A stretch of DNA of 64,000 bases from Archaeoglobus profundus DSM 5631 (GTDB taxonomy: Archaea > Halobacteriota > Archaeoglobi > Archaeoglobales > Archaeoglobaceae), in contig NC_013741.1 of the NCBI RefSeq assembly GCF_000025285.1, positions 868,001-932,000 of the forward strand, read 5' to 3'. The position numbers were made by a program, and so were the translations under genes. This document shows, piece after piece, positions 11,786 to 13,221 of this stretch (position 1 is its first letter; the number at the start of each line of letters is the position of its first letter). The notes under the pieces are model-generated. The model made no database searches and was not told where the DNA came from. It worked only from the letters and a program-made list of their open reading frames with translations.

Positions 11786-12009
11786 GGGCAGATCGCATTT
11801 CATGATCGTCTTTGCTTCAAACCTTCACGGAAATGCCGTAGCATTGAAGGCTCTTCTCGAAAGGGTTGAAAGACTTAAGGAGAACTTTGACATCAAAGCG
11901 GTTTACGTTTTGGGGATTTTCGGTTACAGAGCGTCGCTAAGAAAGCCTCGCTCTTCAGAGCGGGGATGAATTAGGGGAGGAGGGAGGGGGAGGTTGGTGG
12001 AGCGTTAGT

Positions 12010-12017
12010 TTTATAAA
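12010..12017 (+). promoter_or_regulatory. TATA box inside the IS608-type element
   Basis: TTTATAAA at this position is the only strong archaeal TATA match inside the otherwise GC-rich element. Initiation would be expected near 12036-12040, just before the structured region, giving a transcript that leaves the element through its right end. Confidence 0.4.
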
Positions 12018-12037
12018 GCCTCGTTCTGATTTATCGA

Positions 12038-12227
12038 TGTCGGGTGGGTAGGGAGGGTCAACCAAGTCCCCGCAAGGGGAACTATAGCCCACCTCTCCGC
12101 CTTGCGGACAGGTGGGTTTAACGGGGTGCTGACCCACCCCGTGTATATCCGATGAGGAGCGAGGCTGAGGATATGCACAAACCTCCCCGCAAGGAATCCT
12201 CGCACTTCAGTGCGGGGAGGAGGTCAA
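12038..12227 (+). ncRNA. Candidate omega-RNA-like structured transcript of the IS608-type element
   Basis: The stretch is much richer in G+C than the genes around it and folds into successive hairpins: TCCCC-GCAA-GGGGA (12067-12080, GNRA loop); CCCACCT...AGGTGGG enclosing CCGC-CTT-GCGG (12088-12116); a 7-8 bp stem ACGGGGTG/CACCCCGT (12121-12142); and GTATATCC/GGATATGC (12143-12176). CCTCCCCGC (12182-12190) pairs perfectly with GCGGGGAGG (12212-12220), competing with the terminal hairpin. In IS605-family elements the TnpB guide RNA ends at the right end and takes its guide from the flank. This arrangement fits that, but no TnpB is present and transcription is inferred. Confidence 0.45.
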
Positions 12228-12789
12228 ATGCCGTATCCAAAAGAGACTTACGAACTCATTGTTGAGAACGATATAAGGGCTGTGAGAGGGAGAATAGATC
12301 ACCTAATAGCGGAGTGGCACGAGCTCGAAGAGGAGGAGAAGGAAAATCTGAGCGAATTCGAGAGAAAGGTTGTCGAGTGGAACTGGGATCAGCTTGGTAA
12401 AGAGGGAAGAAAGTGGTTAAGAAACGAGGTTCCCAGCTTCTTAGCCGAAAAGTGGGGAGACAACGAGTTTCTATTGGTTTACGGTAGTCCCTATGACCCG
12501 ATAAACGGGTTTGTGAAGCCGAATCAGCCTTCGAGCTACTACGAGAGTATTCTATCTCCTTTCAGAAAGTACGAGATGGTTGTCGTCGGTGGATACGAGA
12601 GGTTCGTTGCTGAGACTATGCACGGTAAGGTTGCATGCCCTGGAGCTTGTGGAGTTTATGCGAATCAGCCGAGCTTTGCAGTTATAGATACGAGAAGCTT
12701 GGATGTTTCCTTTGAAGAGTTCGACTTCGAGACGGGAGATGTTGAAAGGAGTATCAGGGAGAGGTTGCCAGAAGATTGCATTGAAAAAA

Positions 12790-13221
12790 TCATCGACATC
12801 CTTCACCACGGACCTTGAGGTAAAGTTCATATAGTTCTTTGTATATTTTGCCCCTTTCATCTCCCAAAATCCTTGCAAATTCGTAAGCGTTTTTGAAGTC
12901 GCCCACACTCTCGTAGTACAGCATACCCTCCTTCAGAATTCCCCTTCTGACAATCTCATCACCGATCATGTCGCAAACGTAAAGTGCGCTTCTAAATCTT
13001 TTCAGCTTGACAAGCCTGTTTATAGCTTTCAAGGCGATATTGTATCCTACTTCGTAGTCGAACATGATGGCATATTCAACCTCATCGAAGATTTCAAGCT
13101 CCTCCACACTCAATTCGTTCGATTCAAATTTTGGTTCGATTCCATCCTCCTCACACAATCCCACCCTCTTCAGAATCCACATCGCCCTCTTCCTACCCTC
13201 TTCACCCAACTTCGAAAGCAT
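12790..13221 (-). CDS. Uncharacterised helical protein (143 aa)
   Basis: I do not recognise the family. The protein is acidic in its first half and appears all-helical. Its second half has repeat-like helix pairs (YNIALKAINRLVKLKRFRSA, then MLYYESVGDFKNAYEFARIL) that resemble degenerate tetratricopeptide units. The ATG at 13221 is chosen over the TTG one codon earlier. CTTATTTAAG at about 13241-13250 could be its TATA box. The 3' end overlaps the convergent C-terminal fragment of the split phosphoesterase-like gene by 29 bases. It is divergent from the MEMO gene. Confidence 0.6.
   Translation of the reverse strand: MLSKLGEEGRKRAMWILKRVGLCEEDGIEPKFESNELSVEELEIFDEVEYAIMFDYEVGYNIALKAINRLVKLKRFRSALYVCDMIGDEIVRRGILKEGMLYYESVGDFKNAYEFARILGDERGKIYKELYELYLKVRGEGCR

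What the first reader, a model, noticed from the sequence alone, without database searches (positions are those of the whole stretch)
12010..12260. Candidate solo omega-RNA: promoter and structured RNA leading out of the element's right end
A lone TATA box (12010-12017) is followed by ~190 bases of GC-rich sequence that folds into at least four strong hairpins and reaches the TCAA end. In IS605-family elements the TnpB guide RNA ends at the right end and its guide is the flanking DNA. Here the flank begins ATGCCGTATCC, the interrupted gene, and the matching target-adjacent site would be TTAC. If a TnpB exists elsewhere in the genome, this element would be a guide-only unit aimed at the empty allele of the gene it disrupts, and would favour its own retention.
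Basis: inference. Interest (0 to 1): 0.8.

Follow-up and report, generated by a model that had tools for sequence, protein, structure and literature searches.

The report
Guide-RNA-only transposon in Archaeoglobus profundus
A 300-base jumping element in a heat-loving archaeon has kept no protein gene, only the landing ends and a promoter-led copy of the RNA that normally guides the DNA-cutting protein TnpB, and the same kind of guide-only element has arisen several times among its relatives.

Summary
Window 11928-12227 is a 300-bp IS200/IS605-family element. It sits after TTAC, ends in TCAA, and interrupts a gene that rejoins exactly when it is removed. The genome matches Archaeoglobus profundus in size. 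It holds three essentially identical copies plus one full parent element, which carries the genome's only detected Y1 TnpA and a TnpB. The right half of the solo element is homologous to the parent's omega-RNA region. Across four solo and four tnpB-linked copies, 14 of 37 base pairs show compensatory changes (0/500 shuffles). A TTTATAAA box lies about 27 nt before the inferred RNA start and is conserved in solo relatives from two other genomes, one of another genus. The predicted target, TTAC-ATGCCGTATCC, is present exactly in three sister genomes. At least four solo omega-RNA lineages exist in this family of archaea. One is the Rfam orphan RNA HgcC, which here is encoded divergently from its own tnpB. 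Transcription, TnpB binding and cleavage are inferred, not shown.

The parts
11802..11927 (+). 5' fragment (42 codons) of the interrupted gene; its last codon TAC completes the TTAC site
   Evidence: Joined frame of 238 codons; intact homologues in relatives
11924..11927 (+). TTAC, insertion target and predicted target-adjacent motif
   Evidence: Present before all three copies and the parent; kept in the empty allele of G034, G036, G037
11928..12227 (+). Complete 300-bp solo element
   Evidence: Three copies in the genome
11942..11965 (+). Left end: AAAG followed by the subterminal hairpin CCTCGCTC-TTCA-GAGCGGGG
   Evidence: 92% identical to the parent left end over 75 bp
12010..12017 (+). 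TATA box TTTATAAA
   Evidence: Conserved in solo relatives in G016 and G036, absent from the parent; chance 0.001-0.004
12037..12227 (+). Predicted solo omega-RNA (5' end inferred from TATA spacing)
   Evidence: Fold z = -5.6; spacing calibrated; no transcript data
12066..12082 (+). Leader hairpin GTCCCC-GCAA-GGGGAAC, specific to the solo lineage
   Evidence: Present in S1 and S3, altered in S2, partly lost in G036 copies
12086..12118 (+). Helix 1 of the RNA core
   Evidence: 7 of 13 pairs with compensatory changes
12123..12140 (+). Helix 2 of the RNA core
   Evidence: 95.8% of cells paired, mostly invariant
12141..12178 (+). Helix 3 of the RNA core
   Evidence: 7 of 10 pairs with compensatory changes
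12182..12220 (+). Helix 4, enclosing the right-end hairpin
   Evidence: 98.4% of cells paired, mostly invariant
12194..12227 (+). Right end: GAAT, hairpin CCTCGCAC-TTCA-GTGCGGGG, ending in TCAA
   Evidence: Shared with the parent right end
12228..12243 (+). Predicted 16-nt guide, taken from the interrupted gene
   Evidence: Position only; first 11 nt identical in three sister empty alleles
12228..12818 (+). 3' fragment of the interrupted gene, frame open

Best explanation
The feature is a guide-only (solo omega-RNA) member of the IS200/IS605 family. SHOWN by sequence: a 300-bp element with TnpA-type ends, no genes, three essentially identical copies, a parental tnpA-tnpB element in the same genome, an omega-RNA-homologous right half with compensatory base changes, a well-placed TATA box, and a precise empty site in relatives. 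INFERRED: TnpA of the parent moves it in trans; it is transcribed from about 12037 through TCAA into the flank; TnpB of the parent (or a close relative) binds this RNA and uses 12228 onwards as guide; the complex cuts the TTAC-ATGCCGTATCC empty allele left by excision or brought in by recombination, so that repair from an occupied copy restores the element.
For: Three copies and one parent holding the genome's only detected Y1 TnpA. Left end 92% and right end 73% identical to the parent. 14/37 pairs compensatory, 95.9% of cells paired, 0/500 shuffles, slid structures far worse. The R1 covariance model, built from these RNAs among others, also finds other tnpB right ends. Independent support from Rfam sot0042, a tnpB sense-overlapping RNA family: E 3e-6 for the solo, 1.8e-8 for the parent, both below its curated score. 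TATA conserved in G016 and G036 solos. Other solo lineages in G014 and G046 have a TATA-like box 28-30 nt before the RNA core and match tnpB-linked RNAs of their own genome best. Empty allele in G034, G036 and G037 reads GGTTACATGCCGTATCC. No second site with TTAC plus the seed at two or fewer mismatches in the own genome.
Against: No transcript, TnpB binding or cleavage data. The solo RNA is only about 66% identical over the core to the parent RNA, so cross-use is plausible but unproven. The parent TnpB lacks the canonical RuvC-II glutamate (VGD instead of MED); a conserved E in the [KRD]E-x-[YHN]TSS motif may replace it. Some G036 copies have lost helices, so part of the family is decaying.
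Confidence: 0.78

Rival explanations
1. Inert PATE: an internally deleted IS605 relic mobilised by TnpA in trans, whose omega-RNA region is a passive leftover of the right end.
For: PATEs without any known RNA function are well described (PMC3119063). Another family in this genome has kept parts of the ends but no omega-RNA (L008-L011), and 34-bp ends-only elements exist in L208, so the RNA is not needed for spread. Some G036 copies have lost helices.
Against: Between solo copies and tnpB-linked ones the structure is kept through compensatory changes, including changes among solos alone in helix 1. A TATA box absent from the parent is conserved at the RNA. Guide-only forms arose at least four times.
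Confidence: 0.12
2. Regulatory or decoy RNA: the solo RNA is made and binds TnpB but serves to titrate or redirect it rather than to protect this insertion.
For: Three extra RNA genes against one parental copy could dominate the TnpB pool. TnpB cleavage is reported to be inhibited by tnpB mRNA (PMC10278001).
Against: The RNA runs exactly to the element end beside a TTAC site with a real empty allele in relatives, as expected for guiding.
Confidence: 0.07
3. DNA-level hairpins only: the palindromes serve single-strand transposition and no RNA function exists.
For: The two terminal hairpins match the TnpA recognition pattern.
Against: The internal helices 1-3 lie outside the terminal hairpins; the L008-L011 family spread without them, and they covary.
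Confidence: 0.03

Closest known systems
TnpB omega-RNA / reRNA of IS200/IS605 elements (ISDra2, SisTnpB1; PMC8612924, PMC10640517)
   Same: Structured RNA at the element right end, abutting the flank that would serve as guide; TAM equals the insertion target
   Different: No tnpB in cis; own TATA promoter and a 5' leader instead of the tnpB mRNA
PATEs of haloarchaea (PMC3119063)
   Same: Gene-free IS605-end elements moved in trans
   Different: PATEs are defined there by their near-terminal palindromes, and some are only fused ends; this one keeps a full omega-RNA region with a promoter
Transcribed 489-bp PATE in halovirus HRTV-DL1 (PMC10544981)
   Same: Gene-free element with one strongly transcribed end, read by its authors as a possible ncRNA
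   Different: In the passages read it is not analysed as a TnpB guide; different archaeal lineage
Stand-alone IscB omega-RNAs and IStron-type guide-only copies (recalled, not checked: papers not held)
   Same: Guide RNA without its nuclease in cis
   Different: IscB rather than TnpB, or intron-bearing elements; bacterial
HgcC (Rfam RF00062) and sot0042 (RF02656)
   Same: Similar right-end hairpin and ending; sot0042 is a tnpB sense-overlapping RNA
   Different: The solo element of the window scores below both curated cut-offs (36.6/50 and 29.7/88 bits)

Membership tests
IS200/IS605 non-autonomous element (PATE) | Subterminal hairpins with IS605-type cleavage sites and no target duplication | tested here: met
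   TTAC/AAAG hairpin at the left, GAAT hairpin/TCAA at the right; precise in-frame empty site
IS200/IS605 non-autonomous element (PATE) | No transposase gene; autonomous partner with the same ends in the genome | tested here: met
   One Y1 TnpA in the genome, inside the parent with matching ends
IS200/IS605 non-autonomous element (PATE) | Actual mobilisation by TnpA in trans | not testable with these tools
   Three 300-bp copies at three sites argue for recent movement
TnpB omega-RNA | Homology and shared covarying structure with tnpB-linked right-end RNAs | tested here: met
   14/37 compensatory pairs, 0/500 shuffles; model hits next to tnpB genes
TnpB omega-RNA | RNA runs into the flank, which acts as guide beside a TAM | tested here: inconclusive
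   Geometry met and empty allele found; transcript and cleavage not testable
TnpB omega-RNA | Binding to TnpB | not testable with these tools
   No binding data available
Rfam RF02656 sot0042 | Score at or above the curated cut-off | tested here: not met
   29.7 against 88 bits; the parent tnpB RNA also misses it with 42.3
Rfam RF00062 HgcC | Score at or above the curated cut-off | tested here: not met
   36.6 against 50 bits; other elements of this genome do meet it

The most novel reading that the evidence does not exclude
Guide-only transposons are a recurrent life style in Archaeoglobaceae (at least four lineages), parasitic on both TnpA and TnpB in trans; and the orphan archaeal RNA HgcC is a TnpB guide RNA encoded divergently upstream of tnpB from its own promoter, an arrangement not seen in the papers read here, which yields a solo guide element by simple loss of tnpB.
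Probability: 0.6. Interest if true: 0.8.

Novelty: new variant of a known kind. Interest (0 to 1): 0.7.

Why it matters
If true, a transposon can be reduced to a promoter and a guide RNA and still be protected by another element's nuclease. That separates mobility, cutting and guiding into different parties in one genome and makes the self-retention model for TnpB directly testable with natural guides and natural empty alleles. It also offers a function for HgcC, an archaeal noncoding RNA held in Rfam without an assigned role (as recalled).

Tried and rejected
Rfam at gathering threshold finds nothing at the site; only permissive scoring linked it to HgcC and sot0042. A search for second targets in the own genome found none with TTAC and two or fewer mismatches. 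TnpB relatives in a wider genome collection gave five loci, one used in the alignment. A scan of viral contigs for the HgcC-like right end gave mostly unconvincing hits, a lineage III tnpB right end (L207) and ends-only elements (L208), but no HgcC above cut-off. A protein-coding reading of the solo was rejected by eye: its frame lacks the TnpB C-terminal motif upstream of ATAGCCC and meets an early stop. The original HgcC paper is not in the library, nor were several guide-only precedents found there, so priority could not be checked fully.

Full report
OBSERVATION. The element is 11928-12227 (300 bp). It follows TTAC (11924-11927) and ends in TCAA (12224-12227). TTTATAAA lies at 12010-12017, once in the element; the chance of one in the spacer is about 0.001-0.004. 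The RNA part is GC-rich (59%, flanks 42-47%), and 12037-12247 folds at -101 kcal/mol with z = -5.6. Joining 11927 to 12228 restores a 238-codon gene. Homologues of that protein are intact in many Archaeoglobaceae.

GENOME. The genome has 1,563,423 bases in two contigs, the larger of 1,560,622. This matches the published A. profundus AV18 chromosome and 2.8-kb plasmid (PMC3035285). It holds three copies of the solo element: C1:879926-880228, 313904-314206 and 322054-322355. All are 300 bp and preceded by TTAC. It holds one full element at C1:361687-363471 with a 138-aa Y1 TnpA, the only one detected, and a 414-aa TnpB. Nine TnpB matches lie over the Pfam cut-off.

PARENTAGE. The left 75 bp are 92% identical to the parent's left end. 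The right 149 bp are 73% identical to its right end, which overlaps the 3' end of tnpB. The middle, with the TATA box and a 5' leader, has no counterpart found in the parent.

STRUCTURE. Four solo and four tnpB-linked RNAs were aligned. Of 37 consensus pairs, 14 have compensatory changes. 95.9% of cells pair, and no shuffle of 500 reached the observed covariation. Structures slid by 1-3 columns paired 40-59% of cells. The structure was derived from this same alignment, which favours it in the slid control, and the shuffles do not allow for relatedness. Among solo copies alone, helix 1 also shows compensatory changes, though the leader helices do not and the overall covariation term there is not favourable.

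RELATIVES. Solo copies of the same lineage (I) occur in G016 (same genus) and G036 (another genus). The complete ones have the left end, TATA box, leader and RNA in the same order; L060 and L062 are cut by contig ends. A covariance model built on the alignment finds right ends in 14 of 57 genomes of the order. Among them are two further solo lineages: II in G014 (four copies) and III in G046 (three copies; the third, L131, lacks the promoter). In II and III a TATA-like box lies 28-30 nt before the RNA core, the archaeal spacing also seen at SRP RNA and tRNA genes in the window. Cores are 63-66% (II) and 78-88% (III) identical to the best tnpB-linked RNAs of their own genomes, while different solo lineages share about 32-55%. 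Separate origins are therefore the simplest reading; no tree was built.

HgcC. Permissive Rfam scoring matched the solo RNA to HgcC (36.6 bits, cut-off 50) and to sot0042 (29.7 bits, cut-off 88). HgcC itself exceeds its cut-off at three places in this genome and seven in G016; M. jannaschii is among the three control genomes that ring, one of them over the cut-off (the output does not say which). At two of the three places here (656624-656756 and 1539482-1539591) the order is left-end hairpin, tnpB on the opposite strand, shared promoter region, HgcC RNA, right end GAGGAGGTCAG, flank. At the third (1120704-1120836) and at most G016 sites it is left end, promoter, HgcC, right end, with no tnpB as part of the element. 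The third copy here (213 bp) sits inside another tnpB: joining its flanks leaves an open frame of about 410 codons. HgcC therefore looks like a divergently encoded TnpB guide RNA and a fourth solo lineage (IV). This is inference from position and ending; no binding data were available. The HgcC consensus runs about 13 nt past the right end, as a guide would.

MECHANISM. TnpB uses a right-end RNA whose last ~16 nt come from the flank and cuts next to the insertion motif; cutting of the donor joint is proposed to restore the element from a sister copy (PMC8612924). An archaeal TnpB cuts this way at 75 C (PMC10640517). [quoted passage not shown] The target TTAC-ATGCCGTATCC is exact in G034, G036 and G037. 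No second such site with two or fewer mismatches and an intact TTAC exists in the own genome.

CAVEATS. The parent TnpB has VGD where E is usual in RuvC-II. Its clade keeps an E before the TSS motif, consistent with a relocated glutamate (recalled, not checked). The IS608 guide-tetranucleotide rules are recalled; the HgcC elements show TCAC/GAAG at several left ends and TCAG/GAAC at right ends, the changes expected if those bases pair (by eye). G016 shows no TnpA match, perhaps because the assembly breaks at these elements.

PRIOR ART. PATEs are known (PMC3119063), and a transcribed PATE was reported in a halovirus (PMC10544981). Ten searches found no paper on promoter-led TnpB guide-only elements, but the library is incomplete.

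Noticed in passing
L178 and L179 (G000 C1:656624-656756 +, 1539482-1539591 -): Rfam HgcC RNA over its cut-off, encoded divergently upstream of a tnpB and ending at an IS605-type right end; suggests HgcC is a TnpB guide RNA.
   Followed up: partly
L177 (G000 C1:1120704-1120836 -); L180, L182-L186 in G016: Solo HgcC elements (left end, promoter, HgcC, right end) without tnpB, the left end being unclear in L180; the one in G000 is inserted in another tnpB.
   Followed up: partly
L008-L011 (G000 C1:1036984, 1008826, 976325, 478101): Another short family starting like the parent left end; in two of the loci read, an inverted-repeat interior is followed by a partial right end, with no omega-RNA.
   Followed up: partly
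window 12216-12230: The right end GGAGGAGGTCAA followed by ATG places a Shine-Dalgarno-like GGAGG just before an in-frame ATG of the interrupted gene, so the 3' fragment might still be translated.
   Followed up: no
L019 568-1812: Parent TnpB clade lacks the usual RuvC-II glutamate and has a conserved glutamate before the TSS..C motif.
   Followed up: partly
L207, L208 (IMGVR_UViG_648936722): A contig listed as viral with a tnpB right end like lineage III and 34-bp ends-only elements.
   Followed up: no
G016: Many solo omega-RNA copies (lineages I and IV) but no Y1 TnpA match in the assembly.
   Followed up: no
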